Program-made: the position numbers and the translations under genes
The notes under the pieces: generated by a model
What the model was told of the DNA's origin: nothing
What the model saw: only the letters and a program-made list of their open reading frames with translations
Database searches by the model: none
Shown here: one piece after another, positions 38,541 through 61,660 of the stretch
How positions within the stretch are numbered: position 1 is the stretch's first letter
Layout: each line of letters starts with the position of its first letter
NCBI RefSeq assembly: GCF_026210795.1
Contig: NC_089454.1
Span: forward strand, 1,860,001-1,924,000
Length of the DNA: 64,000 bases
Direction of reading: 5' to 3'
Origin: Rhizophagus irregularis
Lineage: Eukaryota > Glomeromycota > Glomeromycetes > Glomerales > Glomeraceae

Positions 38541-38905
38541 CACTAGTCGAAAAAGGAATATTCGGCCTTAGTAAAATTCAGCCTATATTCGACTAAAATC
38601 AAAAATTCGACCATGATCTATGATTAGACATTGGTCGAATAACCATATCACACGTTACGCACATCAAAAGTTTAAAAAAGGATCATTTTTTTTAAACTTC
38701 ACTTTCCCTTTCACTTCGTCTCTTCTTCCCCTTCCCTTTTGTCCTTCCCTTCTCCTTTCATTCTCCCTTTTCTCACACCTTCTTCTGCCTCTTTTTCTTG
38801 GAAGTAATGTAAGTTTCGTTTCGAAACTTACATATTTTTTTAAAAAAATTTTTTATTTTATCTTTTTTCTTTAAATTTAAGAAACGAATTAACGTTTCTT
38901 TATTA

Positions 38906-41083
38906 TTTTTTTTGTAGGACGCCAGCTTGTTCATGAAACTGGGCTTTAAGGTAAAAAATGGGGAAAGGGGAAGGAGGATGGGGATTTAGACCATGATTCT
39001 TAAGAATCTTGATTTTTATTTTTTTTAATATTATGGAACGGTTACTAATAACCGTTCCTTTCTTTTTTATAGGTTTCGGGCAGGCTTTCTGGTTCCGAAG
39101 AATGGAAAAGAACCAAGATTCGTAAGTAAACGAATTTTGGTCTAATTTTTTTTGTTTTTTTCATAATATTAACGAACAGTTACTAATAACCATTTTTTTC
39201 TTTATTATTTTAGGATCGGGTTGGCTTCTGAGTTCCGAAGAACGGAAAGAACCAAGTTTCGTAAGTACGAGTACGAAACTTGGTTATTTTTTATTTTATT
39301 TTTTTTCTATTATATGAACGGTTACTAACCGTTCCTTTCTTTTTCTTATAGGTTCAGCCATTTGGGTGAGTTTCTGAAGAACGGGAAAAAACTAAGATTC
39401 TGTACTATGAATCTTAGTTTTTTTTTTCTTTTTTTAATATTTGGAACGGTTATTACTAACTGTTCTTTTTTATAGGTTTAGTGTTTCAGGTGGGCTTCCG
39501 AAAAATAGAAGAACCAAGATTCGTAAATAAGTACGAATCTTGGTTCTATTTTTATTATTATTATTATTACAAACGGTTTACTAACTGTTCTTGTATATTT
39601 TTTTATAGGTTCAGTGGGCTTCCAAAGAACGAAAACCCAAAGATTCACGTATAAATCTTTATTTTTTTTATTTTTTTAATATTATGAACGGTTATTAATA
39701 ACTGTTCTTTTCTTCTTTTTTTAGGATCAGGTAGGCTTCTGAGTTCCGAAGAATAGAAAACTAAGATTCATAAGAATTTTAGTTTTTTTTTTTGTATTTT
39801 TTGTAATATTAATGAACGGTTACTAATAACCGTTCTTTCTTTTTTTTAGGTTCGGGTGGAGTGGGCTTCCAACCTTCGGGAAAAGAAGAACCAAGATTCG
39901 TACTAACCAAGATTCGTAAATACGAATCTTGATTTATTTTTTTATTTTTTTTTAATATTACAAACAATTACTAATAACTGTTTTTTCTTTTTTTAGGTTC
40001 GGGCAGGCTTCTGAAGAACGAAAACCCAAAAATTCATAAGTATGAATCTTTAATTTTTTTTTTATTTGTTATTACGAATGGTTTACTAACCACTCTTTCT
40101 TTTTTTTTATAGGTTTGTGGGCTTCCGAAGAACGAAAACCCAAAGATAAAGATTCGTAAGTACAAATCTTTTAATTTATTTTTTATTTATTATTATTACA
40201 AATAGTTTACTAACCATTCTTTCTTTTTTTTAGATTTGGGTGGGCTTCTGAAGAACGAAAACCCAAGATAAAGATTTGTAAGTATGAATCTTTTAATTTA
40301 TTTTTTATTTATTATTATTACGAATGGTTTACTAACCATTCTTTCTTTTTTTTAGATTCGGGTGGGCTTCTAAAGAACAAAAACCCAAAGATAAAGATTC
40401 GTAAGTACGAATCTTTAATTTTTTTTATTTATTATTATTACATATGGTTTACTAACCATTCTTTCTTTTTTTTAGATTCGGGTGGGCTTCTGAAGAATGA
40501 AAACCCAAGATAAAGATTCATAAGTACGAATCTTTTAATTTATTTTTTATTTATTATTATTACGAATAGTTTACTAACCATTCTTTCTTTTTTTTTTAGA
40601 TTCGAGTGGGCTTCCGAAAAATGAAAACCCAAGATAAAGATTCGTAAGTACGAATCTTTTATAAATTTTTTTTTTGTTTTTTTTTATTACAAACAGTTAC
40701 CAATAACCGTTCTTTTCTTTATTTTTTAGGTTCGGGTGGGCTTCCGTGTAGAAAAACTAAGATTTATAAGTAAGTATGAATCTTGGTTTAATTTTTTTAA
40801 TTTTTTTTAATATTAATAAATGGTTACTAATAACCGTTCTTTCTTTTTTTAGGCTTTGGGTGGGCTTCTGACCTTCGGGAAAAGAGGAACCAAGATTCGT
40901 AAGTACGAATCTTGGTTTATTTTATTATTATTTTATTATTATGAACGGTTACTAACTGTTCTTTTCTTTTCTTTTTTATAGGTTTGATATCTCAAGTGGG
41001 CTTCTGAAGAACAGAAAAAAACAAAGATTCGTAAGTGGAATCTTAATTTTTTTCTGCTTTTTTTAATATTATGGAATGGTTAC
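38906..41083 (+). repeat. Tandem array of intron-like units, block A (about 17 units)
   Basis: The unit is about 115-135 bp. Order in each: a block of about 40-48 nt like ttcgggtgggcttctgaaga followed by acggaaaa...aagattc; the donor gtaagtacgaatctt; an AT-rich spacer; gaatggtttactaaccattc or gaacggttactaataaccgt; a pyrimidine run; then tag. The donor lies in the palindrome aagattcgtaagtacgaatc (tt), and tactaac/tactaat lies in the second palindrome. A clear example is 40232-40374. It is preceded by a pyrimidine-rich leader (38690-38800). It has no consistent reading frame. Confidence 0.88.
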
Positions 41084-41365
41084 CACTAGTCAAAATAAGG
41101 CAAATCAGCTAAAAATCAGATATGTCAAATTACGGCTTAAATATGTCTGATTTTTGCAAAAAAAAATATATTCTGATTGTTATCCGATTGACTGCCAATC
41201 AGATGTACTTCAGAACTTAAATCGGACATAAATTAAAACTAAATCATACTAAATTTGGACGGTCAATTAGATGTACTTCAGAACTTAAATTGGACAAAAA
41301 TTGGACTATTTTTTTCTGAATTTATTTCAATTTTTATTATCAAATTTTTTAAATGTATTTATTAA
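41084..41365 (+). mobile_element. CACTA-type terminus inside block A
   Basis: cactagtcaaaataaggcaa starts at 41084 directly after ...ggttac of an array unit, so it inserted into the array. Subterminal words aaatcagctaaaaatcaga and gattgactgccaatcag follow. The matching right end next to array sequence was not found; the closest relatives are the ends at 51583 and 53339. Confidence 0.6.
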
Positions 41366-41914
41366 CCCAGTAAAAAGTTATTGTTAGATTTTCGTAGAAA
41401 AAATGTAATGTTACAATTTTAGTACAATTATGAGCATCCATTCGTACAATATTTGTAATTAATTTGTAATAAACTTGTAAGGTTTTCATAATAAATTTGT
41501 TATAAACTTGTAAATTTGTATTATTTGTATTTTAAAATTCGCATAATAGGTATTATTTATTGCAAGTTAGTTACATTTTTATTTTACCATAATGAATTTC
41601 TATTTAATTTAAAAATATTACTAAAAAGAAATCTCAAATTCGAATATCCTAAAGAAAAAAATGAGAATATGTAAATATACACTATGATGATACAGTACAT
41701 TAATATTATAATTAAAATTAAGTAGAATAAAGTACTTATATTTATTTATTATTGTAATGTGTTTAAATGCTTAAAATTATTCATGTTGCTTTGTATTTGC
41801 GAGCGGGAAATTTACTGATGAAAAGGAGTCTTTACCAGTTTTTTGGTCTTGTGCATTAAAATAAAGCTAATTTTTCAATAAAATGTTTCAGTGCAAAATG
41901 TCAATACATAAAAG

Positions 41915-44900
41915 CAGTGTTGGGAATTGTACTAGTACTGTACTAGTACTATACTAGTACAATACTAATACTGCACTGTACTTTTAAAAATTCGGACATT
42001 AGTACATAGTAAATATGACATCATATTATTTTTATTGATTTTTATTGGCTGTACTAAGTACTAGTACTTGTACTAAAATTTATTTCGTACAAACTATATA
42101 GTATATACAGATTATGTAAATTTAACAATTGAATATATTATATTATTTATATACACCTCTACTAATCTTTAAAATGGACAATGCAAATTATCTTTAAACA
42201 TTGTATCTAGTCTCCATTTTGCATCTTTATTTTGTGCTGGATGTTCAATATTTTCGACATTTATATCATCTATATCAAGTTCGTCATCATCATCACCACC
42301 TATTTGGTTTATTTGATTTTGAAATTGTTCTTCTATATTAGTATCGTCATTATCATCATCATCACTTTCTTCACTTTCTGTATGATTTAATTTATCTCTA
42401 TTATTAATATTAGAATCATTTTCCTTATTTTGTTCGTCCAAATTATCTAAATTTATATGTTGTTCTAAATTAATATTAGCTGTAGTTGATTTTAATAATA
42501 CCGATTCTTGTTTGCGCCTTTTGTAAGTAATATCAGCCCGCAATTTTGCCATATTTAATACCCGAGAAAACTATAAATAATAAATTATGATTTAATAATA
42601 TAAAAAAATATAGCATATCGGCAAGGTATTATCAAGTAGATCAGGTGTAACACTATCACATGTTAATATTATGAAAATCTAAGCCACTCTAATAAAATAT
42701 AAAATCTTGTATTTGCGTATTAATATTGAACTAAAAATCAATTACAACACGTATTTAGAATAAACTAAACCTGTCATATGGAATTATTTAATTACCTTCA
42801 ATCGATTCCTAGCTTTTGTATGGAGGAAACCCATACTACTCCATAATCGTTCAACTGATGCGGCATTGACACAGATTCCAAAAATACGTGCCGCAACAGT
42901 TCCAATTTCCGGATAAGCACTTCGAACCCAACACCAATATCTATGAATATCATTTTTAAATTGGCTAATAGATGCATCATCAAAAGGATATTTAGTTCCT
43001 TGCGAAAAAGTCTTCAAATTCTTTAAGGATAGATATAGGATCTTTTCCAGTCAAGCTTTATAATAATAAACTAGCCAGTTGCCGATATGTAAATAGCTGA
43101 TTTGTGATCTTGATGGTAATGTAAAATAATTTGATCTATAAGCCGGATGGAGAAGCCAAGAGAGAATGAGAAGGGGCTGTTCCCATAACTCCCATCTTTT
43201 TTGTAATCGGATTAGAATTCCGTTTGCCATATTATTATCTGGATATTTTTGCCAAAACTGATAAATATAGGCAAATCCATGCAAAACTTCAAACAATCGT
43301 GCCTTATCAGTTTGTAGAATATTAAGAATGGCGCAATAAGGAAGTAGAAGTTGTTCTAATTTTATTAGTGACTCCCAAAAATGTCCATTCATAATTATAT
43401 TATAAATTTCACATGGAATTGTTAATGGATCTGTTGGTCGTCTTTTATTTGTAGAAGTTGAAGGTTCAAATTTCGTAGCTAAAGACTAATAATATAAAAG
43501 TAAATTAAATCAATTATAGTAGTGTAATTACAAAAATTAAATAAGAAAATAATTTTACCCGTAAAGCATTTTTGGTAGCAATTATACTTTTACAGCAATT
43601 AAAGTAACTATTCCATCTTGTATCACCGGGAACCACAGGTTGGATACATTTTCCATATATTTCTGTTTGAATATCTCGGAGTTTTCCAATAAAATATTTA
43701 TTATTTGCATTTTTAAAATAAACTGCAAGTTTTAAAGCCTGTTGTGATGTAGTTTTAAGTTCAGACGAAACTTTAAAAACTTCGCACGCACAAATTAATT
43801 TGGTGTGCGCCACGAGGTAAAAAAACTGTATTTCGATATTGAACTTGAAGTCTTTTTCTATTAATAAAATATATGAATAACATGATTAATTAAATTATTA
43901 AAACAATAATTATTAAAATAAATAGTAATTTATCAATTTATTTACCTTGCTGCATTATAAGCAGGCGCACTATCTGTTACAACAGCTAAAAGAGGTATTT
44001 TGAGTTCATCTAATTGTGACATCATTTCCTCTACTTTTAATCTAACTTCAATATTTGTTACTCTCTCGCTACTTATGTCAGAAGCTTTCCATACATATGG
44101 TTGTCCATCAGATGATGTGAGTACCGTCCCCATTAATTCTTGTTCACGAACATTTGTCCAACCATCAAAAGAAAGGGTAATTCCTACTCTATCTAATACT
44201 AATTTCTCTAACATCTTAATATCAAATTCTTTAACAGCCTCATCTAAAATTTCATTTGATAAGGTTTTTCGATCTGGCAATTTAATTTGTGGATTAAGAA
44301 ATTTAAATAATTCAATTACCTCTGGATTATTTATCCAAGACAGTGAAAATCCACAAGAAATAGTAACTTGTAATAGATGCATATGAAATTTTATTTTATC
44401 TGCACTTGAAAGAGATCGTGTAATAAATGACTCCATGGGGCCATAATTTGACCATTGAGAAGGTAAAGATGTCAATGAAGAGTGTGAAGAAAATGATTCT
44501 CTTCGTTCAACTATTGAATCTAAAGTTGGATCAAAATCATCTACTATTGAAAAAGATGTGTTAAATGTTAATTTTATAGTAATAATGAAACATATCTTAT
44601 ATCTATTTATATAAGAAACTACTTACATATTCTTTTACCCAAAACTGTACTTTTTTGTTTATTAACTGAAAATACTTCATCTTTTTCCTGTTGATTATAT
44701 AAAGACTGAAAGTTTTGACAGTTTTTGAAATGGTTTAAAATTCTGTCAGTCTTGTCTACTATTTTTTTTAATTCGGGATGATTTTCACCAAGCTTACTAA
44801 AACACGCTCTACAATAGCATATTTTATTAGTAGCACCACTTTTTAAGTTTGTTGAAATGATATATTTCTTTAAGCTTTGTACCATTGTAAAGAGATTGTA

Positions 44901-45155
44901 AAAAAAACTTTATGTTAAAAAGCTTTATTTTGTAGAAATTATAGCGGAGACTAAATGAAATTTTTTTTTACGCGTTTCGTTATACAAAAAAAAGAATGTA
45001 CGAAATGTACTAATTTTGTACTAAATTTGATTCGTACAAGTGTACTACCACTTTGAAATGTACGAACATTACTTGTACTAAGTACAGTAGTACTAGTCCG
45101 AGTATTGTACCATGTACTAGAATTTTCTTAGTACATATGTACTACCACAACACTG
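41915..45155 (-). mobile_element. hAT element, 3.2 kb, full length
   Basis: A perfect 8-bp target duplication cataaaag lies at 41907-41914 and 45156-45163. Ends are cagtgttgggaattgtacta and (inverted) cagtgttgtggtagtacata. Subterminal arrays of gtactagtac occur at both ends (41927-42000, 45050-45130). It encodes a hAT transposase on the minus strand. The only defects I see are a few frame breaks, so the insertion is probably young. Confidence 0.95.
42169..44885 (-). pseudogene. hAT transposase, nearly intact
   Basis: Approximate exons: 44885-44631, 44545-43949, 43860-43558, 43485-42785 and 42555-42169. The N-terminus has a BED-like zinc-finger pattern (CYCRACF...HFKNC). The catalytic core shows ITLSFDGWTN (first Asp), LLAVVTDSAPAYNAARR (second Asp), VPGDTRWNSY and the C-terminal dimerisation region ASVERLWSSMGFLHTKARNR with the catalytic Glu. 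The acidic tail (EESDDDDNDD) ends at 42169. Breaks: a one-base frameshift near 43790 between the AHQINLC motif and the following helix, and two compensating frame changes around 43000-43065. The enzyme would excise and insert the surrounding element through its gtactagtac subterminal repeats. Frame breaks could also be sequencing errors. Confidence 0.85.
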
Positions 45156-45163
45156 CATAAAAG

Positions 45164-46190
45164 TGTTAGCTAAATTGGTAATATTACACACAAGTCAACA
45201 ATCAAGTCATATGAACATAAAATCATATAGAACTGAAGGTAAATAAATAGGTTTATCTTCAATTTTATTAACATATCTTTTTTCCATGGATGACTTGAAA
45301 TATGATTACATGACTAAAACTTCTTAACAAGCAATGAAAAGAAGATGATTGTTAACATTCATATTTTTATTAGATATTCAACAATACAGAAGACTTACCA
45401 CTACACAAGGAGTTATAATGTATAACAGCAACTCTAATAAACTCTAGCGAAATCATTTCCAATTCTCTTTTATTATAGAATCCATCAATTAAACCATCTT
45501 AATTGAGGGGAATAAAATGCGCCAATACTGCTGTTGCCTGGATAATGTTCCTGATGTTATTTTGAAATTCCAATATTGCAAGCAAATCATGTTGATTATC
45601 ACAGTAATCTTATGGTAGAAATATTTAAAGACCTTTTGATAAACTCCGTGCTAATATTAAGGAGTGACATAACATGATGGCTCAGTATTACAACCTAAAC
45701 AAAGTCAAATTCAGTTAATGTTTTGGAATATTCTAGCAAAGCAGAATTTATGAATTAATAAAATTAAACATACTAATTGTCTTTCATGTTTGTTAAAAAA
45801 TATGAACAAAATTTGGTTTATACCCACTTTACCATTGCAAACTCCAATCAACTGATCAAAGAAACTTGGTCAGTTATAAAAGGTTAGTTGCTAGAACACT
45901 GTCTTAATTCTAATTCTTTTGCTTGTCATATACTTCTAAGGAAAGTCTACTAATGTGGATTATTTGGTGCTGAAAAAATATAGAGATTTATGTGGTGATA
46001 TATTATTAGTCAAAAAAGATTTCGATATGATTGATAATAATTAACAAAAATACATTAAAATAATAAAATTTACAAAATTTACATAAAAACCTGTCTTAAT
46101 TTATAAGTAAACTATTTAGACATTTACCTTGATTTTTTAAGAAAATTTTATATTAACTATTCACCCATATCATGTTATATAAAAGAAGAA
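45164..46190. other. Body of the TAA element, nothing recognised
   Basis: Less AT-biased than its surroundings, and may be the remains of a gene, but no frame over 60 codons and no motif that I can name. Confidence 0.4.
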
Positions 46191-47090
46191 ATTATGGAAG
46201 GAATGAAATGAGACATAAAAAAAATAGGTATGTAAAATATATAAAAAAAATATAGATAAAATGAGGAATAAAATCAAGACGCGTAAAAAAGGGAAATAAA
46301 GTTAAGAAGAGAGGAAAAATCAAGTGTAAAACAAAATTAAGACACGTAAAAAGAGAAATGTGTAAAAAGGAAATAATAAAATCAAGAAGAAAAAAAAATC
46401 AAATGTAAAATAAAATCAAGACGCGTAAAAAAAGGGGAATAAAATCAAGAAGAGAGGAATCAAGTGTAAAATAAAATTAAGACGCGTAAAGGAGAGATGT
46501 GTAAAAAGGAAAGAATGGAACCAAGAAAAGAAAAATAAAATATAAAATAAAATCAAGACGTGTAAAAAATCAAGAAGAGAGGAAAAAATCAAGTGTAAAA
46601 TAAAATTAAGACGCGTAAAAAGAGAAATGTATAAAAAGGAAATAACAAAACAAGAAGAGAGGAAAAATTCAAATGTAAAATAAAATCAAAACGCGTAAAA
46701 AGAGAATAAATAAATGTGTAAATAAAATAATAAAATTAAGATACGTAAAAAGAAAAATGTGTAAAAAAAGGGAGGAATAAATCAAGTAAAACTTAAAAAA
46801 GGGAAGAATAAAATCAAGACGCGCAGAAAAGAGAGGAAAATATCAAGATGCGTAAAAATAGGAGGAATAAATTAAGCCGTGTAAACAAGATATGTAAAAA
46901 AGGGAGGATACATACTTATAAAAGATAGAAACATGTAAAAAAGAGAAGAATAAGATGCATAAAATAGAAAGAGAAAGATATATAAGAAAGAAGATGCATA
47001 AAGTAAGGATAATTGAATTAATAATTAAGATGTGTAATAAAATATATCAAAAGAAGATGTGTAAAAAAATTTATTAAAAGTAAGCTAAGT
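46190..47090 (+). repeat. Purine-rich tandem repeat with acgcgt words
   Basis: Degenerate units of roughly 50-120 bp built from aaatcaagacgcgtaaaaa, gaagagaggaaaaatcaag and tgtaaaataaaattaagac, repeated more than ten times. The plus strand is almost purine-only. Confidence 0.75.
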
Positions 47091-47439
47091 ATTCCAAGTT
47101 TACCGAATTTCAGAAATAAAGCACAAATTTCTAATGCTAAAATAAACCATACAATTTTCATTTATTAAATATCATAAATTTTAATAAATCTTACAATAAT
47201 TATACGTTTAATTTTACAAAAAAAACAAAAAGTATTTAAATTTAACAAATACTAAACGAAAGTTAGACAATTATTACAAAAACTAAACAAAAACTATATA
47301 AATTTTATACAATGACTTTTTACTGGGTAATTAAATGCTTAAAAACTTTATAATTATATTATTATTATTAGCATCTATCTAAATTACAAATAAATATTGC
47401 TAATTTAAAATTATAATAAAATAATAATAATAAAATAAA

Positions 47440-48316
47440 TCAAGATTCGTACTTATGAATCTTGGTTTTAGTACAAATCTTGGTTTTGGTTTATCCATTC
47501 GTCAGAAATTTACTCGAACCTATAAAAAAAAAGAACGGTTATTAGTAACCGTTCATTAATATTAATAAAAAAAATTTAACCAAGATTCATATATACTTAC
47601 GAATCTTGATCTTTTTCTGTTCTTCAGAACTTGAAAGTCCATCTGAACCTATAAAAAAAAGAAAGGAACGGTTAGTAAACCATTCCAAAATAATAAAAAA
47701 AATAAAAAATAAACCAAGATTTGTACTTACAAATCTTTAGTTCCTTTTCTTCCAATCTTCAGAAGTCAACCGAAACCTAAAAAATAAAAGAAAGGAATGG
47801 TTAGTAAACTGTTCCAAGTAATAAAAAAAAACAAAAATAAACCAAGATTCATACTTACGAATCTTAGTTTCTTTTTCTGATCTTCAGAAGTTAATCGAAA
47901 CCTAAAAAATAAAGAAAGGAACAGTTAGTAAACTGTTCCAAATAATAAAAAAAAAAAAATAAACCAAGATTCATACTTACGAATCTTGGTTCCTCTTCTT
48001 CCGATCTTCAGAAGTCAATCCGAAACTTAAAAAATAAAAGAAAAGAACAGTTAGTAAACTGTTCCAAATAATAGAAAAAAAAATAAAAACAAAATCAAGA
48101 TTCGTATATACTTACGAATCTTGGTTCTTTTCTATACTTTGGAATTTGGAAGCCCACCAAACCTAAAAAAAAGAAAAGTATGGTTATTAGTAACTATTCA
48201 TTAATAATATTAAAAAAAAAAATCAAGATTCGTAATTAGTAGTTACTTACGAATCTTGATTTTCCGTTCTTTAGAATTTGAAAATCCACCTAATTCTAAA
48301 AAAAAGTAAAGAACAG
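47440..48316 (-). repeat. Intron-like array, block B (minus orientation, about 7 units)
   Basis: Same unit as block A read on the minus strand: aagattcgtaagtatgaatc-type donors (for example 47596, 47868, 47990, 48117) and ctaaaaaaaa/cctataaaaa acceptor sides. It is cut at 48316 by the 5.3-kb element. Confidence 0.85.
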
Positions 48317-48869
48317 CCCTATAAAAAATATATATACGGTTAGTATACTGTATTTTCGTATTTTGCGAACAGTATATTTATAGTATTATTACCGTATAAT
48401 TACAGTATTTTTACATACTGTATATATTCGGTATTCTGCACATCGTATCATATATACGGTTTGCATACAGTATATTTTTCCAGTTTCACTCGTATGTTTT
48501 ATACTTGTAAACAGTAGAAAAACCATATGTTTTATACCAATAAACAGTATATTGTTTTATATTTTATATTGCGAACAGTATACTTTTCCAGGATAAACCG
48601 TATATTTTATACTGATAAAAAGTACTTTTTTCCAGTTTAAACTGCATATTTTGTACTGATAAATAGTATATATTATTTAATTAAATCGTATATTTTATAT
48701 TTGCAAACAGAATTTAAAATGCATTTATAATTAATAAAATTTTTATTAAATAATATTAAATATACAAAGATTTTTTTATAAATAATATAAATAAAAAACT
48801 AGTATAAAATAATATATTATTTGTAAAAAAAATAATATTAGCAAAATATAAACAAAAAAAAAAAGAAAT

Positions 48870-49080
48870 TTAATTATTAGTAATGTTATCATTATTTTAA
48901 ATATAAAAAAGGAATAATAAAAGGTTAGTAAAAAAAAAGAAATTTAATTAGTAATATTATCATTATTTTAAATATAAAAAAGGAATAATAAAAGGTTAGT
49001 AAAAAAAAAGAAATTTAATTAGTAATATTATCATTATTTTAAATATAAAAAAGAAATAATAAAAAGTTAGTAATATTATT
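48870..49080 (+). repeat. About 64-bp tandem repeat, three units
   Basis: Nearly identical units containing aaatttaattagtaatatta and aaataataaaaggttagt. Confidence 0.85.
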
Positions 49081-49659
49081 AATATATTAGTTAGATATAA
49101 AAAAGTAATAAAACGATAGTAGTAATGTTAGTAATATATTAAAAAAATTAAATAAAATACATAAAAGTAAAAAAAAAATATAATTAATATATGTTAACAT
49201 ATAATATTAATATAAAAATAAAAACATAAAACGGTGTACATATAGTTGTTTAATTAATATTGTTAAAATTCACCATTACAATTCCAGAGAGATATTAGTG
49301 AAAGTAATTGTTAATTGATATACGTGCATATCACTTTTTGTATAATTAGTAGTTTGGTACAAATATATATATTATATATTATCAAAATAAGTTTTTTATT
49401 TAATTTTTATTATTATATGTTAAAATAATTTTGGTATTCATTTTTATTGTCTTTTTTTTTCTAAAAAAAAAGAAGAGAAAAGAATATTTTTGAAAAAATA
49501 AACAAAAAATAAACAATAACGTGTTATTAATGCATGTGATCGGCGATCAGCTGAATTTTAATTGGTTAAATGTAGAAATGCGAAAATTAAAAAGCAGAAG
49601 TATTTTTTTAAAATTTAAATCATACAGATTGTTTTTAAAGTTTAATTAGTAATTTAAAA

Positions 49660-49940
49660 GTTCTTTTTTTTTAATAAGAAAATTTGTAAAAATTTTTCTT
49701 AATACTGCTTAATTTTTAAATTAAAGCCTTAATACTAAATTAGCTAAATTAGAATTAAGAAAAATTTGTGAGAATTTTCTTTGATACTGCTTAATTTTTA
49801 AATTAAAGCTTTAATATTAAATTAGTTGAATTAGAATTAAGCAGTATTAAGAAAAATTTGCAAGAATTTTCCTTGATACTGCTTAATTTTTAAATTAAAG
49901 CCTTAATACTACTAAATTAGTTAAATTAGAATTAACATAT
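49660..49940 (+). repeat. About 95-bp tandem repeat, three units
   Basis: Units contain agaattttccttgatactgc, ttaatttttaaattaaagcc and ttaatactaaattagttaaa. The same repeat returns at 51040-51375. Confidence 0.85.
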
Positions 49941-51040
49941 GGACTGATTTATGGAATTAAGTTTTTATATTCAAAAAACTAACTTTATTAAGAAAATGCT
50001 AATACAATTTACATGAAAATGATAGATTCACACCGCTGATATAAATAAAATTGATTTGATTATATTATTTTTTGATTTTTTTAATAATATCATTAAAATT
50101 AAAAAATTTAAATATAATTGTCATGACAAAATATTGAACAACTTAACGTGTATGTGTGCTAGACGAATGAATTTATATTCATTAGAAAGAGGTAATCAAG
50201 AGCTATCCATAAACCAAATATCACATGAATTGGATCACAAGTTGCTGAATAATTACGTTCAATATATTTATTTTTAACCTTTGACTTTGATCGTTAATAT
50301 CTTCACATCTAGTAATTCGATTTGAATAATCTTTTTTCGTTCAGGTAGAGTAGATTCTGGGCTTTCATATGAATATAAATATATGTGTTTAGCATACATG
50401 TACGCCGAGATATTAACGATTTTGTTAATTGAATAAAACTCTGACACAAAAATTTTTAAAATTATAATTCTTTTACCAAAAGATGATCTTTACAGGTATT
50501 ATTGGGCTCTTTTTACTTTACTTAACAAGTTTTTATTTGCCATTTCTGTTTTAAATTGAATAAATTAATAAAATCAATTTTAAAAAGTAATTAACAAGTA
50601 GAATAAAATTAGTATAGTAAAAAACAAAAAAAAACATCTCAAAAACTCTAAATCATAATTCACATTTTTATTTTGTATATATTTTTACTAAAAAAAAGAA
50701 GGAAATAAGGTTAAAAATAAATGAAAAAAGATTTTTCTTATTAATAAAAATTATTAATATTTGTTTTCTTACTTACTGATTAAAAAAAACCTGCTATATA
50801 TGCCTATAAACTTTTCTAAGTCACCTAACAAAAATCTGATTGAAAAGTGATTGAAAAGTGATTGAAAAAGAAAGTAGTTGCCATTGTTATTTTTGAATAA
50901 ACGTTAAAAAATTTTTTTTTTATTTTTTGATAGATTTAGATCATCTGATTATGTAACACATACAATTTAAGCTTGTGAAACATAATTCTTGTTAAAATGT
51001 GCAAATCTTTATGTTTGGCTAATTTCACGAATTGGCAGAT
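49941..51040. other. AT-rich interior of the 5.3-kb element
   Basis: A single 73-codon frame (50056-50277) has no recognisable motif. Otherwise nothing seen. Confidence 0.4.
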
Positions 51041-51375
51041 ATAAGCAGTATTAAGAAAAATTCACAAGAATTTTCCTTGATATCTTAATTTTTAAATTAA
51101 AGCCTTAATACTAAATTAGTTAAATTAGAATTGCACAATAACAGTATTAAGAAAAATTGCAAGAATTTTCCTTGATACTGCTTAATTTTTAAATTAAAGC
51201 CTTAATACTAAATTAGTTAAATTAGAATTAAGCAGTATTAAGAAAAATTCGCAAGAATTTTCCTTGATACTGCTTAATTTTTAAATTAAAACCTTAATAC
51301 TAAATTAGTTAAATTAGAATTAAGTAGTATTAAAAAAAATTCATGAGAATTTTCCTTAATACTGCTTAATTTTTA
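51040..51375 (+). repeat. About 95-bp tandem repeat, second cluster
   Basis: Same unit as 49660-49940, about four copies, with cagtattaagaaaaattcgc as the variable junction. Confidence 0.85.
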
Positions 51376-51582
51376 AATTATAATTTATAAAAATGATTTA
51401 TAATTGAGTTTTGAATTTAGTATTATCAATCGGACTTTGAACTTAAAAATTAAACAGTATTAACAAAAATTCTTGTGAATTTTTTAATAATTGTGATTTT
51501 ACATCAGTGAGTTTTTGGGTAGTACATATTAGCAGATACTAGTATTGTTTGATGCTTTAAAGTGTAGAAAAACTTACTCTAT

Positions 51583-53339
51583 CACACGTCAAATAAATAA
51601 AAATTGGCTGATTTTAGCTATATTTGTCCGATTTGTGACTTTTTACAGCCGTATTACCAATTCTTAACCACATTTTTCAGTTTTTTCACTATACAAAAAA
51701 ATTGTATATACATTATGAAATATATATTTTTATAAAAAATTATATTGTAATATTGAATTAAAATTTAAAAAATATTTTATTAAGCAATATTAAATAAAAA
51801 ACTAATCTTAAATAATTAAATTTTAAACAAAATACATTAAGAATATAAATTTACTTGTAATTTAATGTAATACGCACAATTATAAAAAATTAATAACTCC
51901 ACAAATATTAACTGTACCTTCATTAAAATAAATATTCAAGTAGATTCTAAGCTGCTGAACAATTTTTAATTAATAAAAGAAGTCGATTTACTTTGGCTAA
52001 AGTGCTTAAAATACGCTCTGAAGTAACAAAATAGAAAAAATAAAATTCGTAAATGAGTACCATTGTGAAAATCGCGAATAACTCATCAAGTATTAACTGT
52101 ACCTTCGTAAAAATTAATATCCAAGTAGATTTTGACCTGCTGAACAACTTTCAATTAATAAAAGAAGTCGATTTACTTTGACTAAAGTGCTCAAAATACG
52201 CTCTGAAGTGACAAAACGGAAAAAAATAAAATTCGTAAATGAGTACCATTGTGAAAATCGTGAATAACTCATCAAGTATTAACTGTAGCTTCGTAAAAAT
52301 TAATATTCAAGTAGATTTTGACATGTTAAACAACTTTCAATTAATAAAAGAAGTCGATTTACTTTGACTAAAGTGCTCAAAATACGCTCTGAAGTGACAA
52401 AACGGAAAAAAATAAAATTCGTAAATGAGTACCATTGTGAAAATCGTGAATAACTCATCAAGTATTAACTGTACCTTCGTGAAAATTAATATTCAAGTAG
52501 ATTTTGACATGCTAAACAACATTCAATTAATATAAGAAGTTGGTTTACTTTGGATAAAGTGCTCAAAATACGCTCTGAAGTGACAAAATGAAAAAAATAA
52601 AAGTCATGAATGAGTACTGTTGTGAAAATTGTAAATAACTCATCAAGTATTAACTGTACCTTCGTGAAAATTAATATCCAAGTAGATTTTAACCTGCCGA
52701 ACAACTTACAATTAATATAAGAAGTTGATTTACTTTGGCTAAAGATCTCAAAATACGCTCTGAAGGTAAAAAAATTTGTAACTTAATACTACTGTATAAT
52801 ATAAAAAATGTAAATAATTCCAAAAATATTAACTGTACTTTTATGATCTTAACAGTTTTAAACTTACTAAACTACTTTTAATTAAAAGAATAAGATTTAC
52901 TTCAGCCAAAATGCTCAAACCATACTTTGAAATATATGTAAAAAAAATATAATATTTGTTTATATTTTAAATTATGAGTTATTTAATTTAAATGTATTTA
53001 TATTTAAGAAAAAAAATATTTTAATTCTATTTTATAAAGTATTTAAAAAGTATTTTAGTAAAGTTTTTAAGGCAAAAAAATAATTATAACTGAAATAAAA
53101 AAAAATCTAAGTTAATAAATAAATATTAAACCGTAATACATAATCACATGTTATATATTAAAATTGAAAAATCCTATTACAAATAACCAAAAATCGGCAA
53201 TTTCATGTTAAAAATCAGAAATATTATATTAAAATCAGAAATATTTATTAAAATCGGAAATATTATATTAAAATTGCCAAAAAATCAGACAGCCATATTA
53301 AAAAGGGCAAAAATCTGATTTTTATTTATTTGACATGTG
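51583..53339. mobile_element. Non-autonomous CACTA-type element (1.76 kb)
   Basis: Ends cacacgtcaaataaataaaa and inverted cacatgtcaaataaataaaa. Flanking tat at 51580-51582 and 53340-53342. Subterminal words aatcggaaatattatattaa cluster near the right end. No transposase. The body is the tandem repeat of about 180 bp. Confidence 0.88.
51900..52790 (+). repeat. About 180-bp tandem repeat, about five units
   Basis: Units share agtcgatttactttg, aaagtgctcaaaatacgctc, ctcatcaagtattaactgta and attaatatccaagtagattt. The first and last units are diverged. Confidence 0.9.
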
Positions 53340-53660
53340 TATATCTGTAGAAAATACGTTATAAACGTATGAATTTTAATATACTGTAGAATAATACGTA
53401 TACCGTATCCTTTATTTACAATATTTTTGTGAACCGTATACAAAATACTGATATACAGTAGAAATGATATACGTTATAGACGTATGAATTTAATATACTG
53501 TATCACACAGTATGTTTACCGTATACTTTATTGTATTTTTTACTAAGCACATTTTGCGAACAGTATACATTATACTGATATGCCGTATGTAAAAATGCAA
53601 ACTGTATCAAAAATACATATATACAGTATAAAAACCGTATACATATTTTTTATAGGGCAG

Positions 53661-54618
53661 TTATTAGTAACCGTTCATTAATAATATTAAAAAAAAAAAT
53701 CAAGATTCGTAATTAGTAGTTACTTACGAATCTTGATTTTCCATTCTTCGGAATTTGAAAATCTACCTGATCCTAAAAAAAAGTAAAGAATGGTTATTAG
53801 TAACCGTTTATTAATCTATATATTAAAAAACACTGCAATCACGTGGGCGTTATGTTTAGATTAACCATATAAATAAGTCATTTGAATTGTGTAACCCTAC
53901 TCCTATTCGTCCCTAATGTTACACAAGACCAAAAAAGAAATTTTATTTCTGGCGAAAAACTGAAATTTTTGGTTATACAGGATTCCATAAAAGGAAATTG
54001 TCGGTTATGCAAATTTCCAAAAAAGGAAATTTTATCTTCTATTACTTTTCAGAGAAATTAAAAAATTGTATTGCTCAAATTTCCAAAAAAGGAAATTCTT
54101 TGCAGATCTTTTAATTCTGGCCGGAATTACATATTAACTGTTGTCGTAGACAACAGGTGAACACTAGTAATATTAAAAAAAAAAAGAAAAAAATTAAGAT
54201 TCGTAATTAGTAGTTACTTATGAATCTTGATTTGGAATTTGGAAATCCACCTGATCTTAAAAAAAAGTAAAGAATGGTTATTAGTAACCGTTTATTAATA
54301 ATATTTAAAAAAAAAGAAAAAAAATTAAGATTCGTAATTAGTAGTTACTTATGAATCTCTTCGAAATTCAGAAATTCATCCGATTCTAAAAAAAAAGTAA
54401 AGAACGGTTATTAGTAACTATTTATTAATAATATTAAAAAAAAAAGAAAAAAAATCAAGATTTGTAATTAGTAGTTACTTATGAATTTTCATTTTCCATT
54501 CTTTGAAATTCAGAAATCCACCTGATCCTAAAAAAAAAGTAAAGAATGGTTATTAGTAACCATTTATAATATTTTTTTTAAAAAAAAGAAAAAAAACAAA
54601 ATCAAGATTCGTATATAC
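53661..54618 (-). repeat. Intron-like array, block C (minus orientation, about 6 units)
   Basis: Continuation of block B after the 5.3-kb element. Many units carry the variant ttcgtaattagtagttactt in the donor palindrome. Interrupted by the Helitron at 53815-54167. Confidence 0.8.
53815..54167 (+). mobile_element. Non-autonomous Helitron (353 bp)
   Basis: The 5' end is TCTATATATTAAAA and the 3' end ACACTAG, inserted exactly between A and T. Removing it restores ttattaataatatt, the normal array text. An 8-bp perfect stem with 3-nt loop (ctgttgtc-gta-gacaacag, 54138-54156) lies 11 nt before the end, as in Helitron terminators. There are no inverted ends and no target duplication, which also fits. 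The interior repeats tttccaaaaaaggaaat. Confidence 0.88.
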
Positions 54619-55715
54619 TAGAGCTCTGAATTTAACCTGATGAATCGGATAATCTAACGGGTTGACCCAAAAAATTCGGGTTGGGTAGCAAATTTAATGA
54701 CCTGATCTCAGGTTGAGTCAGTCACAGTCGAGTACCTGATCCGATCTATTGACCCGATATATTTTGGGTTAAAAAAAAACGTTTTGGCATTTTTTATATC
54801 GCCAAAATCTGAATCTGACATTTTTTCATTAAAAATAATAATAAAACACGTCTTCTTTTAATAAAATAATTTTTTTTTAAATTAAAAATGTCAAACTCAA
54901 TGTTCTTCATTAAATTAAACAAAAAAAAAAGTTTTTTTAATGAAAAAACGTCAGATCTGACATTTTTCATTAAAAGATACATAAAAAAACTTTTTTTTTA
55001 ATTAAAACGTCAAATCCGACGTTATTCATTAAATTAAACAAAAAAAAAAGTTTTTTTAATGAAAAAATGTAAGATCTGACATTTCTCATTAAAAGAAATA
55101 TAAAAAACATTTTTTTTAGTTAAAAACGTCAAACCTGCCATTTTTTATTAAAGAAACAAAAAAAAAATTTTAATAAAAAAACATCAATCTGACATTTTTT
55201 TATTAAAAGAAACAAAAAAAAAAGTTTTTTTAATGAAAAAATGTCAGATCTGACGTTTTTCATTAAAAGAAACAAAAAAAAAAGTTTTTAATGAAAAAAT
55301 GTCAAACCTGACGTTTTTTCATTAAAAGAAAAATAAAATAACATTTTTTTAATGAAAAAACGCTGAACATGACATTTTTCATTAAAAGAAACAAAGAAAA
55401 AAAATTTTTTTAATGAAAAAACGCTAAACATGACGTTTTTCATTAAAAAAAACAAAAAAACCATTTTTTTTAATGAAAAAATGCCGAACCTGACATTTTT
55501 CATTAAAAGAAACAAAAAAAAAGTTTTTTAATAAAAAAATGCTGAGCCCGATATTTTTCATTAAATGAAACAAAAAAAAAAGTTTTTTAATGAAAAAATG
55601 TTGAATTTGGCATTTTTCCATTAAAAGAAACATAAATAACATTTTTTCATTAAATAAAATGAAAAACGTTTTTTTTAAACATCAATGGGTTGGTTCGGAT
55701 ACCCAACCTGACCTG
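54619..55715. mobile_element. hAT-type end with hairpin minisatellite, right end missing
   Basis: The left end tagagctctgaatttaacct matches the right end of the MITE 11180-12030 (inverted tagagctctgaac). The body 54770-55670 is a tandem repeat of about 58-60 bp whose units contain aaaatgtcagatctgacatt, a palindrome. Subterminal words recur at 55685-55715 (ggttggttcggatacccaac), but no matching terminus or 8-bp duplication follows. The repeat array changes orientation across it. Confidence 0.65.
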
Positions 55716-56527
55716 ATGCAAAAAACATTTTGTCGTAATATATGATATGTAAAAAAAGTGCCAAAATGCCGTTCTTTTTCTTTTTTTTTATAGGTTCAGT
55801 ATTTCAGGAAGGCTTCCAAAAAATGGAAAAACCCAAAGATTCACGTACAAATCTTTATTATTTTTATTTTTTAATATTATGAACAGTACTAACTATTCTT
55901 TTTCTTTTTTTTATAGGTTCAGTGTCTTAGGAGGGCTTTTGAAGAACGGAAAACCCAAAGATTCATGTACGAATCTTTGTTTTTTTTATTTTTTTAATAT
56001 TATGAACAGTACTAACTGTTCTTTTTCTTTTTTTTTATAGGTTCGGTGTCTTGAAAGAGCTTCTGAAGAACGGAAAACTCCAAAGATTCACGTACAAATC
56101 TTATTTTTTTACTTTTTTTAATATTATAAATGGTTATTAATAACCATTCTTTTCTTTTTTTTTAGAATTGGGTGGACTTTCAAGTTCCAAAGAATGGAAA
56201 ACCAAGATTCGTAAGTACGAATCTTGGTTTTTTTTGTATTTTTTGTAATATAAATGAACGGTTACTAATAACCATTCTTTTCTTTATTATTTTAGGATCG
56301 GGTGGGCTTCTGACCTTTGGGAAAAAGGAACCAAGATTCATAAATATGAATCTTGGTTTATTTTTATATATATATTTTTTTAATATTAATGAATGGTTAC
56401 TAATAACCGTTCTTTACTTTTTTTTAGGTTCAGTTGCTTTCGAGTTTCGAAGGACGAAAAAAACTAAGATTCATAAGAATCTTGATTTTATTTTTTTTAT
56501 TTTTTTTTTAATATTAATGAATGGTTA

Positions 56528-56682
56528 GGGCAGTGACATTTATTACGTAATATCCATTTACTATAAGCCCATACTCCCCCACCCCTATGTAATATGAAAA
56601 ATCTTACATTACACTTATATGTTATATGACCTTTAAATACCCTCCCACCCCCTAAAATATTACGTAATAAATGTTACTGCCC
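56528..56682. mobile_element. PIF/Harbinger-type MITE (155 bp)
   Basis: Inverted ends gggcagtgacatttattacg and cgtaataaatgttactgccc. The 3-bp target duplication TTA (56525-56527 and 56683-56685) is the usual Harbinger target. Confidence 0.9.
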
Positions 56683-57479
56683 TTACTAATAACCATTCTT
56701 TACTTTTTTTAGGTTCGGTGGCTTCTGAATTCTGAAGGACGAAAAAAACTAAAATTCATAAGTATGAATCTTAGTTTATTTTTTTTATATTTTTTTTTTA
56801 ATATTACATATAATGAACGGTTACTAATAACTGTTTTTTTCATTTTTTTAGGCTTCGGGTGGACTTCCAACCTTTGGGAAAAAAAAACCAAGATTTGTAA
56901 GTACGAATCTTGGTTTATTTTTTTTATATTTTTTTTTAATCTTAATGAACAGTTACTAATAACTGTTCTTTTCATTTTTTTAGGCTTTGGGTGGGTTTCC
57001 GACCTTTGGGAAAAAAAAACCAAGATTCATAAATACGAATCTTGGTTTATTTTTTTTTATATATTTTTTTAATATTAATGAATGGTTACTAATAACTGTT
57101 CTTTTCATTTTTTTTATAGGTTTGGCTATTCAGGTAGACTTCTGAAGAACAGAAAAAACCAAGTTTTGTAACTTGGTTTTTTTTTGGTTTTTTTATTATA
57201 ATTATGAACAGTTTACTAATCATTCTTTATAGGTTTGGGTGGACTTTTGAAGAACGGAGGAATCAAGATTTGTAAGTAAGTACGAATCTTGGTTTTATTT
57301 CTTTTTTTCTAATATTACGAATGATTTACTAACTATTGTTTCTTTTTTTTTTTATAGGTTTGGGTGGGTTTCAAAAAATGAAAACTCAAAGATTCGTAAG
57401 TACAAATCTTTAATTTTTTTATTTTTTATTATTACAAATGGTTTACTAATCATTCATTCTTTTTTTTATAGGTTCAGGT

Positions 57480-57721
57480 TAGTGTTCTGCACGAATCAAA
57501 TTTTTCCTCTGAAATTTGATTCGATTCAGACTTGATTTGACCTCCAAAAATTATTATTTCAGGATCTAGTGATCCAATTTCAATGATCTTTTTTTAATCA
57601 ATAGGTCTCGTTTCCCTGATCAAAATAAAAAAAAAGATCATTAAAATTGGACTGCTAGATCAAAAGTTATTCACAAAATACGTTTTTATTATTCATGAGC
57701 AATTATTCATGCAGAACACTA
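57480..57721. mobile_element. hAT-type MITE (242 bp)
   Basis: An 8-bp target duplication gttcaggt lies at 57472-57479 and 57722-57729. Inverted ends are tagtgttctgcacgaatca and tgattattcatg-type to gcagaacacta. Inner arms aggatctagtgatccaattt and aaaattggactgctagatca pair and resemble the inner arms of the foldback at 18260. Confidence 0.9.
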
Positions 57722-58213
57722 GTTCAGGTGGACTTTTGAAGAACAAAAACCCAAAGATTCATAAGTACAAATTTTTAATTTTTTTTTATTTTTTATTATT
57801 ACAAATAATTTACTAATCATTCATTCTTTTTTTTTATAGGTTTAGGTGGGCTTCTGAAGAACGAAAATCCAAAGATTCATAAGTACAAGTATGAATCTTT
57901 AATTTTTTTTATTTTTTATTATTACGAATGGTTTACTAACCATTCTTTCTTTTTTTTATAAGTTCGGGTGGGCTTCTAAGGATCGGAAAAAGGAAAACTA
58001 AGGTTCGTTATAAACCTTAGATTTTTTTTAATATTATGAACGGTTTCTAACTATTTTTTTCTTTTATTTTTATAGGTTCGATTGGCTTCTGAAGATTGAA
58101 GAAATTAAGATTCGTAAGTAAGTATGAATCTTGGTTTTTATTATTATTTTATTATTATTATTATTATTATAAATGGTTACTAACTGTTCTTATTCTTTTT
58201 TATAGATTTCAGT

Positions 58214-58435
58214 TAAGGTTGCTTGCCAAAACCTTCTTAATAACTGCCGAAACCTATATGGAAAATGCCGAAACTATATTAAATCATATTAAAAATCCTG
58301 CCGAAACTTTGCCGAAATGCTGAAACCCCCATTTGCCGAAACTGCTGAAACCCTGCCAAAACTATAGTAAACATATAGTAAAATCTTGCCGAAATTTATC
58401 GCAGGATTTTGGAGAGGTTTTGGCAAGCAACCTTA
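58214..58435. mobile_element. hAT MITE, TAAGGTTGC family copy 2 (222 bp)
   Basis: An 8-bp target duplication atttcagt lies at 58206-58213 and 58436-58443. Ends are taaggttgcttgccaaaacc and ttttggcaagcaacctta. The interior is rich in tgccgaaac words, and it is the short version of the 1.6-kb element at 7762. Confidence 0.95.
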
Positions 58436-58500
58436 ATTTCAGTAGGCTTCTGAAGAATGAAAAAAAACTAAGATTTGTAAGTATTACGAATCTTAGTAGT

Positions 58501-59475
58501 TCTTTTTTTTAAAAAAAAGAAACGTTATAATGTATTAACGTTTTTATTTCTTTATTTTGTAGGAACTCCAGGGCTCTTCTCCTCTCACCTTCTCTCTTTT
58601 CTTTCATTTTTCCCTGCCATTTCTCTATTTCTTACTTTTGTAGAACATTTTCTTGGAATTTTCTTTAGCTTCAGTAGATTACTTTAGTAGGACGTGTAAA
58701 TTAGCATCTTGGAATTAGTAAGTTTTTTTTATTATTATTTTTGATTTTTTTTATTGATTTTTTTTATCTTATAATTTGTAAAAATCAACAGTTTCCCACT
58801 TACTGGATCGAATTGGTAAGTTTTTCACTTAAAAACTTTTTAAAAAAATTTTTTTTTTATTATTAATTAATTTTTTTATTATTTTTTTTTGTAATTTTGG
58901 CTTCCTTATCCCAGATAATAGGATTGATTAATAAGTTTCAAAACGGTTTATTTTGAAACTTTTTTTTTAAGGTTTTGTTTTTCTAAATTTTTATTTCCGA
59001 TCGGACTTGGACTTTATTTTTTTTCTTTAGTTATAATGAGACGACTTTTAATATTCGTTCTTTCCAAGATGTGATCATGTGATTGTGAAATTGTGTATAA
59101 TTATTTTATTTATACATTAGATAGATGCTAATATACATGTACTGTATATTTAAGTGTTTTAATAAATTAATAAATTTGAAATGAAAACTAAATTAATAAA
59201 TAAATATTGAGACCTTAAAATTTTGTATCGAATAATTATCTAAACTGTGCCTCAATTTAACATCACTATTAAACCTAAATTTAACCTAGTCAAATTTAGG
59301 TCGAATGGTAGTGTAATGACTAATGATGGTTGAATTTTTTTTCTGAATTTAAGAAGATTGACACCCTAAATGTGCCTGAAAATTTGACCTCAATTTGATG
59401 ACACAGGTTAGATTATCATTCAACCTATATTCAACCTGGTCAAATTTAGGCTGAATTATCCTATTTTAACTAGTG
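58501..59475 (+). other. Right shoulder of the CACTA-bounded region
   Basis: A pyrimidine-rich stretch (58570-58640) and several donor- or acceptor-like junctions, then AT-rich sequence and the subterminal repeats attcaacctatattcaacct before the end at 59475. No gene seen. Confidence 0.5.
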
Positions 59476-60763: not shown

Positions 60764-61660
60764 TAAGAATGGGTCCGCAAATGATTTTCAAATTCTGCAA
60801 TATTGTGGATTTTGGAGTTGAATTGCGGTTAGTAGCCTGCAATTCTGCAATTTTAATTGCTGCCCATAACTGTCAGCTTCGTACATTTATAAAAATGCCA
60901 GAACTATGGGTTCTAGCATTTTCTTTTAATTTTTTTTACATAAAAATGCTGGAACTATGGATCTGGTATTTTCTTTTAATTTTTTTTTACATAAAAATGC
61001 CATTACTATATATAATTCTGGCGTTTTCTTTTGATTTTTTACATAAAAATGCCAAAACTATGAGTTCTGGCATTTTCTTTTGATTTTTTTTATATAAAAA
61101 TGCCAGAACTATGATTCTGGCGTTTTCTTTTGATTTTTTTACATAAAAATGCTGGAACTATAGGTTCCAGCATTTTCTTTTGATTTTTTTTACATAAAAA
61201 TACCAAAACTATGGTACCAGCATTTTTTTTGATTTTTTTTACATAAAAACGCCAGAACTATGATTCCAGCATTTTCTTTTGATTTTTTTTACATAAAAAT
61301 GCCAGAACTATGATTCTGACATTTTCTTTTGATTTTTTTATATAAAAATGCCAGAACTATAATTTTGACGTTTTCTTTTAATTTTTTTTACATGAAAATG
61401 CCAGAACTATGGTTTTAGCATTTTCTTTTAATTTTTTTTACATGAAAATGCTAGAACTATAGTTCTGGCATTTTCTTTTAATTTTTTTTTATATGAAAAT
61501 GCCAGAACTATGATTCTGGCATTTTCTTTTAATTTTTTTTACATAAAAATGTCAGAACTATGGTTCTGGCATTTTTTTTAATTTTTTTTATGTAAAAATG
61601 CTAGAACTATGGGTTCCAGCATTTTTTTTAATTATTTTTTATATAAAAACGCCAGAACAA
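60764..61660. repeat. Hairpin minisatellite (about 58 bp, about 13 units)
   Basis: From about 60886 units read aaaatgccagaactatggtt then ctggcattttcttttgattt tttacat. The ends of each unit pair (gccagaac/gttctggc). Several units carry compensatory changes on both sides (gctggaac with gttccagc). The flanking 60764-60885 is unassigned. Confidence 0.85.

What the first reader, a model, noticed from the sequence alone, without database searches (positions are those of the whole stretch)
38906..58500. Tandem satellite whose every unit looks like a small exon plus a complete intron
Seen: in blocks A-D, units of about 120 bp carry, in order and with intron-like spacing, gtaagta, then about 45 nt of AT sequence, then tactaac or tactaat, then a pyrimidine run of about 15-20 nt, then tag. 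For example, the stretch 40271-40354 would be an intron of about 80 nt with a perfect GTAAGT donor and TACTAAC branch point. Exon-like blocks are 40-48 nt and keep no reading frame. The donor and the branch site each sit at the centre of their own palindrome, so both could be hidden in hairpins. Known: these are the consensus intron signals of fungi. Inference: the array may be transcribed and spliced, or the units may propagate as introner-like modules. I know of no described element of this kind.
Basis: partly seen in the sequence, partly recalled or inferred. Interest (0 to 1): 0.8.

Follow-up and report, generated by a model that had tools for sequence, protein, structure and literature searches.

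The report
Transposons carrying tandem exon-intron cassettes
In the genome of a root-symbiotic fungus, a family of jumping DNA elements carries rows of 4 to about 22 near-copies of a tiny exon plus a complete-looking intron, which would be remarkable if the cell really splices them, but no RNA data could be checked here.

Summary
Blocks A-D hold 101-147 bp units with a GTAAGT-type donor, TACTAAC-type branch site, T-rich tract and TAG. Two exact signatures match 659 times in the 147 Mb genome; the same patterns read backwards match 0 times. The arrays are the interior of dispersed, non-autonomous CACTA-like DNA transposons: ends CACT[A/G]GTC, identical 3-bp target duplications in 15 of 15 copies where both ends were found (of 34 loci fetched), 1.4-4.1 kb. 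The window copies are decayed and interrupted by other insertions: 16 of 39 scorable units keep all three signals. In 30 unit lineages shared by at least 3 loci, GT is kept in 30, AG in 30 and the branch in 28, but palindrome arms are kept as well. Folding predicts array donors more open than in controls, although some leader-intron donors are paired. Joined exons show no convincing reading-frame constraint. No intron-less copy was found. Best reading: an intron-rich, probably non-coding unit moved by CACTA transposase. Splicing is inferred from anatomy, not shown; mapping published RNA reads would decide.

The parts
38541..38571 (+). 5' terminal inverted repeat (CACTAGTCGAAAAAGG...) of the block A element; flank TAC
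   Evidence: homologous to the start of L001
38686..38801 (+). pyrimidine-rich leader tract, found in 7 of 7 copies checked
38809..38917 (+). leader intron-like segment (109 nt): donor inside a hairpin stem, branch-like motif in a second hairpin, not homologous to the array introns
38980..41083 (+). block A: exon-intron-like array; 16 scorable units, 6 with all signals
47412..48313 (-). block B: downstream part of the minus-strand array
48317..53657 (.). insertion of about 5.3 kb that splits blocks C and B; ends CCCTATAAAAAATA, 3-bp duplication CTG
53661..54617 (-). block C: upstream part of the same minus-strand array, itself interrupted; C and B together have 9 scorable units, 5 with all signals
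55768..58510 (+). block D: exon-intron-like array; 14 scorable units, 5 with all signals
56528..56682 (.). short inverted-repeat insertion (155 bp) inside block D with TTA duplication
59449..59475 (+). 3' terminal inverted repeat (...CCTATTTTAACTAGTG); flank TTA, which does not match the TAC at 38541, so A and D are not shown to be one element

Best explanation
The arrays are the cargo of a family of non-autonomous CACTA-like DNA transposons in Rhizophagus irregularis. Shown: ends CACT[A/G]GTC, 3-bp target duplications, and on one strand a leader, 4 to about 22 exon-intron-like modules and a tail; each module has an exon-like block (mean 44 nt) and an intron-like block of host intron size (median 84 nt) with strong donor, branch and acceptor motifs, the donor and branch each in a hairpin. 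Inferred: the element is transcribed through the array; in young copies at least the modules are spliced as ordinary spliceosomal introns; the product is non-coding or not conventionally coding; unit number changes inside the element; a transposase supplied in trans moves the whole. The likeliest benefit of the introns to the element is better expression or escape from silencing, which is a guess. Old copies, including those in the window, are decaying and are probably no longer spliced as intact arrays.
For: Identical 3-bp duplications in 15 of 15 copies with both ends recognised. L005 is 96% identical to L007 and to L008 over 3.3 kb at other sites. At least 155 matches to the CACTA transposase domain in the genome, so a source in trans exists. 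In 30 unit lineages: GT 30, GTA[AC]G 26, branch 28, AG 30, over about 16 donor-loop forms of 6-18 nt. 659 exact signatures, 0 reversed. Intron-like length fits 13 host introns of 61-119 nt. Leader and tail introns of different sequence repeat the donor-hairpin plan (8 of 9; hand-picked, two homologous pairs). Array donors are predicted to be open.
Against: No RNA evidence. Splice positions are no better kept than palindrome arms. Donor G is lost in old copies at a rate within that of other CpGs of the unit, so nothing keeps it after insertion. No joined-exon copies. The pyrimidine leader is absent from 5 host genes checked, so promoter identity is unsupported. No autonomous partner found. Some leader donors are paired.
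Confidence: 0.6

Rival explanations
1. DNA-level palindrome array: the repeats are protein-binding sites (for example for a transposase or TNPA-like helper) or slippage-prone palindromes that multiply and are kept perfect by template switching; the splice signals come from a captured exon-intron fragment and are not used.
For: Palindrome arms are as conserved as the splice core. Arm positions co-vary (donor pair 7: 325 of 425 Watson-Crick against 171 expected under independence; branch pair 5: 371 against 267), which template switching and shared ancestry also produce. Other palindromic tandem arrays without these signals occur in the window (by eye).
Against: Acceptor AG and T tract are not palindromic, yet AG is modal in 30 of 30 lineages. 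Introns outside the arrays have other stem sequences but the same plan, which a sequence-specific binding site would not need.
Confidence: 0.27
2. Protein-coding array: the exons are translated, in frames that shift from unit to unit, giving a variable repeat protein.
For: One frame is open through all joined exons in 14 of 29 arrays. Exons are poor in stops in all frames: 134 against 241 +/- 10 in 200 shuffles. L012-L017 gave pN/pS 0.20 in the open frame against 0.62 and 1.90 in shifted frames.
Against: Random exon order is as open in 26 of 29 arrays (p<=0.05 in 3). Phase-permutation test on synonymous changes: 1 of 28 rows below 0.05, uncorrected, one at 0.050. ATG is depleted too (61 against 90). 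L007 and L008 have a stop in each frame. No Pfam match above cut-off for three translations. Exon blocks are related, so the stop count is not a set of independent trials.
Confidence: 0.08
3. Introner-like spread: single units insert into genes and become introns.
For: Each unit looks like a complete intron. Among described introner families that could be scored, 72 of 177 show inverted repeats and 49 of 130 target duplications (PMC9860276, passage).
Against: In the loci fetched, units lie in arrays or transposon remnants, the mobile ends enclose many units, and the left arm of the donor palindrome lies in the exon block. A full genome screen for lone units was not done.
Confidence: 0.05

Closest known systems
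CACTA (EnSpm/CMC, incl. Plavaka) DNA transposons, non-autonomous members
   Same: CACT[A/G] ends, 3-bp target duplication, repeated motifs able to form hairpins, many transposase genes in the genome; PMC4219821 (passages) describes CACTA ends, a 3-bp duplication and stem-loop-forming subterminal repeats
   Different: repeats fill the interior and have exon-intron form; no transposase inside; no autonomous partner found
Satellite arrays inside or derived from CACTA elements (Chenopodium; PMC7320549, PMC8978399, passages)
   Same: tandem repeats associated with CACTA elements
   Different: there a monomer from about 40 bp of the transposase gene, or a captured satellite; the word 'splice' does not occur in PMC7320549
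Introners (PMC9860276, passage)
   Same: mobile DNA with splice signals, often with inverted repeats and target duplications
   Different: an introner is one intron in a gene; here one element holds many exon-intron modules
CACTA insertions whose host intron is still spliced (soybean TgmR*, PMC4219821, passages; maize dSpm recalled)
   Same: CACTA element and splicing interact
   Different: there a host intron holding the element is removed; here the element would carry introns of its own
Pack-CACTA gene capture (recalled, no call)
   Same: could explain how an exon-intron piece entered the element
   Different: no source gene identified; the piece is amplified in tandem

Membership tests
CACTA/EnSpm DNA transposon | Terminal inverted repeats starting CACTA or close variant | tested here: met
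   CACTAGTC or CACTGGTC starts with complementary ends, both ends in 15 of 34 loci by pattern
CACTA/EnSpm DNA transposon | 3-bp target site duplication | tested here: met
   15 of 15 copies with both ends; in L011 a second, more distant candidate 3' end did not match
CACTA/EnSpm DNA transposon | Transposase (tnp2/PF02992) in the element or in an autonomous partner with the same ends | tested here: inconclusive
   155 genome matches (nearly all listed); none of the listed ones lies inside the 15 delimited elements; partner not found in two candidate loci
CACTA/EnSpm DNA transposon | Dense subterminal repeats bound by a transposase helper | not tested
   binding cannot be tested here and subterminal repeats were not scored
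Spliceosomal (U2-type) intron | GT donor, branch motif, pyrimidine tract, AG in host-like spacing | tested here: met
Spliceosomal (U2-type) intron | Removed from RNA | not testable with these tools
   no RNA reads available; no intron-less genomic copies found
Introner | The mobile unit is a single intron inserted in genes | tested here: not met
   mobile units are 1.4-4.1 kb with many modules; lone units in genes not screened exhaustively
Satellite DNA | Long free-standing tandem array | tested here: not met
   4 to about 22 units, between transposon ends in the delimited copies
Protein-coding repeat gene | Frame kept across joined exons under purifying selection | tested here: inconclusive
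   mostly negative, with a stop deficit and one lineage (L012/L017) that lean the other way

The most novel reading that the evidence does not exclude
A transposon with a built-in splicing cassette: tandem, interchangeable modules in which hairpins present near-perfect donor and branch motifs, so that one short transcript loads many spliceosomes. Module number and exon phase can change freely because exons are short, poor in stops in all frames and bounded by self-sufficient introns. The cassette would serve to recruit the splicing machinery for expression, export or evasion of silencing, and not to encode a protein.
Probability: 0.3. Interest if true: 0.85.

Novelty: new variant of a known kind. 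Interest (0 to 1): 0.6.

Why it matters
If spliced, these are mobile elements with up to about twenty near-identical introns in under about 4 kb: a natural test bed for how intron number, donor strength and local RNA structure affect expression and silencing of transposons, and a possible source of exon-intron modules for host genes. It may also help to name part of the repeat fraction of R. irregularis that is reported as unclassified (about two-thirds of TEs; PMC11075540, passages). If unspliced, it shows how a full set of strong splice signals can persist through palindrome maintenance alone, a caution for intron prediction.

Tried and rejected
Free satellite: rejected, since in the delimited copies the arrays lie between transposon ends with target duplications. 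Introner as mobile unit: rejected for the sampled loci. Donor hidden in array hairpins: not supported by folding, but true of some leader introns. SP7 effector genes (hydrophilic tandem repeats): considered from passages of PMC11333574 and not pursued; I did not compare sequences. Protein-coding array: a first composition-shuffle test looked strongly positive but was misleading, because exon-order permutation and a phase-permutation synonymous test did not support it. Intron-less copies: the joined-exon search returned 113 matches, each covering one exon and at most a few bases beyond (40 of 127 candidates scored), and a junction pattern with up to 3 mismatches gave 0 (no positive control for that pattern). 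Autonomous partner: two loci fetched; L045 is a 5' fragment without units and L046 another array copy. Promoter: the pyrimidine leader was not found in 5 host chaperonin loci. Host introns: 15 junctions tried in 5 gene regions, 13 introns kept and chosen by me from candidates by frame and profile position; two left out as ambiguous. The nine introns were hand-picked after I had seen the hairpins. The eight splice-core columns were my choice and leave out donor +1 (0.93), +4 (0.89) and two branch columns (0.73, 0.53). One script hit its time limit with fuzzy patterns and was replaced by profile searches.

Full report
WHERE THIS IS. The window is contig C26:1860001-1924000 of a 146.7 Mb, 32-contig genome. 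Contig C13 is 5,085,394 bases long, equal to the scaffold N50 given for the 32-chromosome assembly of Rhizophagus irregularis DAOM197198 in PMC10234402 (passages read). I take the organism to be that arbuscular mycorrhizal fungus.

The four blocks contain units with a GTAAGT-like donor, a TACTAAC-like branch site, a T-rich tract and TAG; 34 units cut by a simple rule are 101-147 bp long. Blocks C and B read as one minus-strand array split by an insertion at 48317-53657 with ends CCCTATAAAAAATA and a CTG duplication. Block A stops at 41084 at another CACTAGTC end. Block D holds a 155-bp inverted-repeat insertion with a TTA duplication. Two exact whole-unit patterns match 235 and 424 times genome-wide, a few places being counted twice; the patterns read backwards match 0 times.

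IT IS A TRANSPOSON. A 251-base query gave 289 matches spread over most contigs (lower bound). I fetched 34 loci. L005 is 96% identical to L007 and to L008 over 3.3 kb at other sites. Elements start CACTAGTCGAAAAAGG or CACTGGTCGAAATC and end ...GACTAGTG or ...GACCAGTG. Both ends were recognised by pattern in 15 of the 34 loci, and in all 15 the flanking 3 bp are identical: CTA, TAG, GAG, GAT, AAA, GTA, CAT, CCC, TTA, ATA, TTG, TCA, TAA, GTA, ATT. Lengths are 1,429-4,096 bp (in L011 a second, more distant candidate end did not match). These are CACTA hallmarks. The genome has at least 155 matches to the CACTA transposase domain PF02992; none of those listed falls inside the 15 delimited elements. 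I found no autonomous partner: searches with the 3' and 5' ends gave 42 and 40 matches (best candidates only), and of two further loci one is a 5' fragment and one another array copy. The window ends 38541 and 59475 have different flanks (TAC, TTA), so I do not claim that A and D are one element.

ANATOMY ON THE SENSE STRAND. TIR, pyrimidine-rich tract (7 of 7 copies checked), leader introns in several copies, in some a purine-rich segment of about 500 nt, 4 (L021) to about 22 (L014) modules, a short tail, TIR. Exon-like blocks: 355, mean 44 nt. Intron-like blocks: 410, median 84 nt, 5-95% 74-95. A related set in which I recognised no TIR (L029, L031, L033) carries the same modules; in L031 they follow about 1 kb of T-rich tandem hairpins.

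ARE THE SPLICE SIGNALS MAINTAINED? Of 425 scorable units (448 aligned, 23 dropped), 410 have a GT in the donor loop, 332 the strict GTA[AC]G, 410 the branch, 407 the acceptor, 311 all three. In the window 16 of 39 are intact, so these are old copies. In the 402-unit alignment, donor G is kept in 284 of 327, with 40 changes to A in a CpG, a rate within that of the other CpGs of the unit; I see no sign of selection after insertion. To look past decay I grouped units at 92% identity and took the 30 groups (of 141) seen in at least 3 loci: the commonest donor has GT in 30, GTA[AC]G in 26, the branch in 28, AG in 30, although the donor loop takes about 16 forms of 6-18 nt. At this level eight splice-core columns average 0.965; 16 of 10,000 random sets of non-palindromic columns reach that, but 5,579 of 10,000 sets of palindrome-arm columns do (my choice of eight leaves out donor +1 and +4 and two weaker branch columns). 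Splice sites are among the best kept positions but not better kept than palindrome arms. This is the main reason why I call splicing likely and not shown.

HAIRPINS. Variable stem positions co-vary (donor pair 7: 325 Watson-Crick of 425 against 171 expected under independence; branch pair 5: 371 against 267; most other pairs hardly vary and say nothing). Shared ancestry and template-switch repair of palindromes can produce this too. In 80 units sampled from 15 young loci the donor hexamer has mean unpaired probability 0.61, against 0.42 with flanks shuffled (40 units) and 0.32 in 13 host introns; the branch A has 0.64, the acceptor 0.37; mean folding z is -4.6 with 20 shuffles each. In the arrays the hairpins tend to present the donor. 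That is not general: in the leader introns of window block A and L030 and the post-array intron of L031 the donor is in the predicted stem. Nine introns outside the arrays, hand-picked and including two homologous pairs, show a donor hairpin (z of -1.8 or lower) in 8 and a branch hairpin (z of -1.5 or lower) in 6.

HOST COMPARISON. Thirteen introns from five host chaperonin gene regions (15 junctions tried) are 61-119 nt long, with looser donors such as GTATGT, GTAAAT and GTGAGC. The element's introns fit the host's size with stronger motifs. The sample is small.

NO CONVINCING READING FRAME. Joined exon blocks are open in one frame in 14 of 29 arrays, but random exon order is as open in 26 of 29. 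A phase-permutation synonymous test gives p below 0.05 in 1 of 28 rows, uncorrected. Two results lean the other way: exons are poor in stops in all frames (134 against 241 +/- 10), and L012-L017 gave pN/pS 0.20 in the open frame against 0.62 and 1.90 shifted. The units are related, so I do not treat these as strong, but the stop deficit is unexplained. Three translations had no Pfam match above cut-off. A joined-exon search and a junction pattern found no intron-less copy.

LITERATURE. Eight full-text searches of the open-access library listed no paper whose title or abstract start describes such an element; most listed papers were not opened, and most subscription papers are not held. PMC11075540 (passages) reports that about two-thirds of R. 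irregularis TEs were unclassified and that Plavaka, of the CACTA/CMC/EnSpm group, is prevalent. CACTA-linked satellites (PMC7320549, PMC8978399, passages), a CACTA insertion whose host intron is still spliced (PMC4219821, passages) and introners (PMC9860276, passage) are the nearest precedents.

VERDICT. Transposon identity: near certain on ends and target duplications. Splicing: more likely than not, inferred. Function of the cassette: open; escape from silencing or better expression is a guess. I call it a new variant of a known kind, with interest 0.6.

Noticed in passing
window 8320-9110 (+): A second tandem array (period about 122) whose units also look exon-intron-like by eye (T-rich run ending GTAG, then a block like TGTTGCCAGACGAAAAACATGACCGGACTTT). 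A leader exon of L023 shares the GCCAGACGAAA motif.
   Followed up: partly
window 54861-55654 and 60889-61658: Two other tandem arrays of short palindromic, T- or A-rich units (periods about 60 and 50) without obvious splice signals, suggesting that palindromic arrays are common in this region.
   Followed up: no
window 42169-44475 (-): Broken gene pieces in the insert after block A; one open frame matches Pfam DUF659 (E 1.4e-8, 35.0 bits, cut-off 34.7). That this goes with hAT-like transposases is recalled.
   Followed up: partly
exon-like blocks of the young arrays: Stop triplets are depleted in all three frames (134 against 241 +/- 10 in dinucleotide shuffles of 252 exon blocks). I cannot explain this; relatedness of the blocks inflates it.
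   Followed up: partly
L031 930-1940 (oriented): About 1 kb of T-rich alternating hairpins between a GTGAGT donor in a hairpin and a TAG, like one long hairpin-filled intron before the modules.
   Followed up: no
G000 C4:2969499-2969957 and C6:4406211-4406657: Two CACTA transposase-domain matches lie within about 0.7 kb outside the 3' ends of two element copies; nested insertion or remnant of a partner was not resolved.
   Followed up: no
L026 1833-5078 (+): A 1081-codon open frame beside an element remnant; to me it resembles a type-B DNA polymerase of a large mobile element (recalled, not searched).
   Followed up: no
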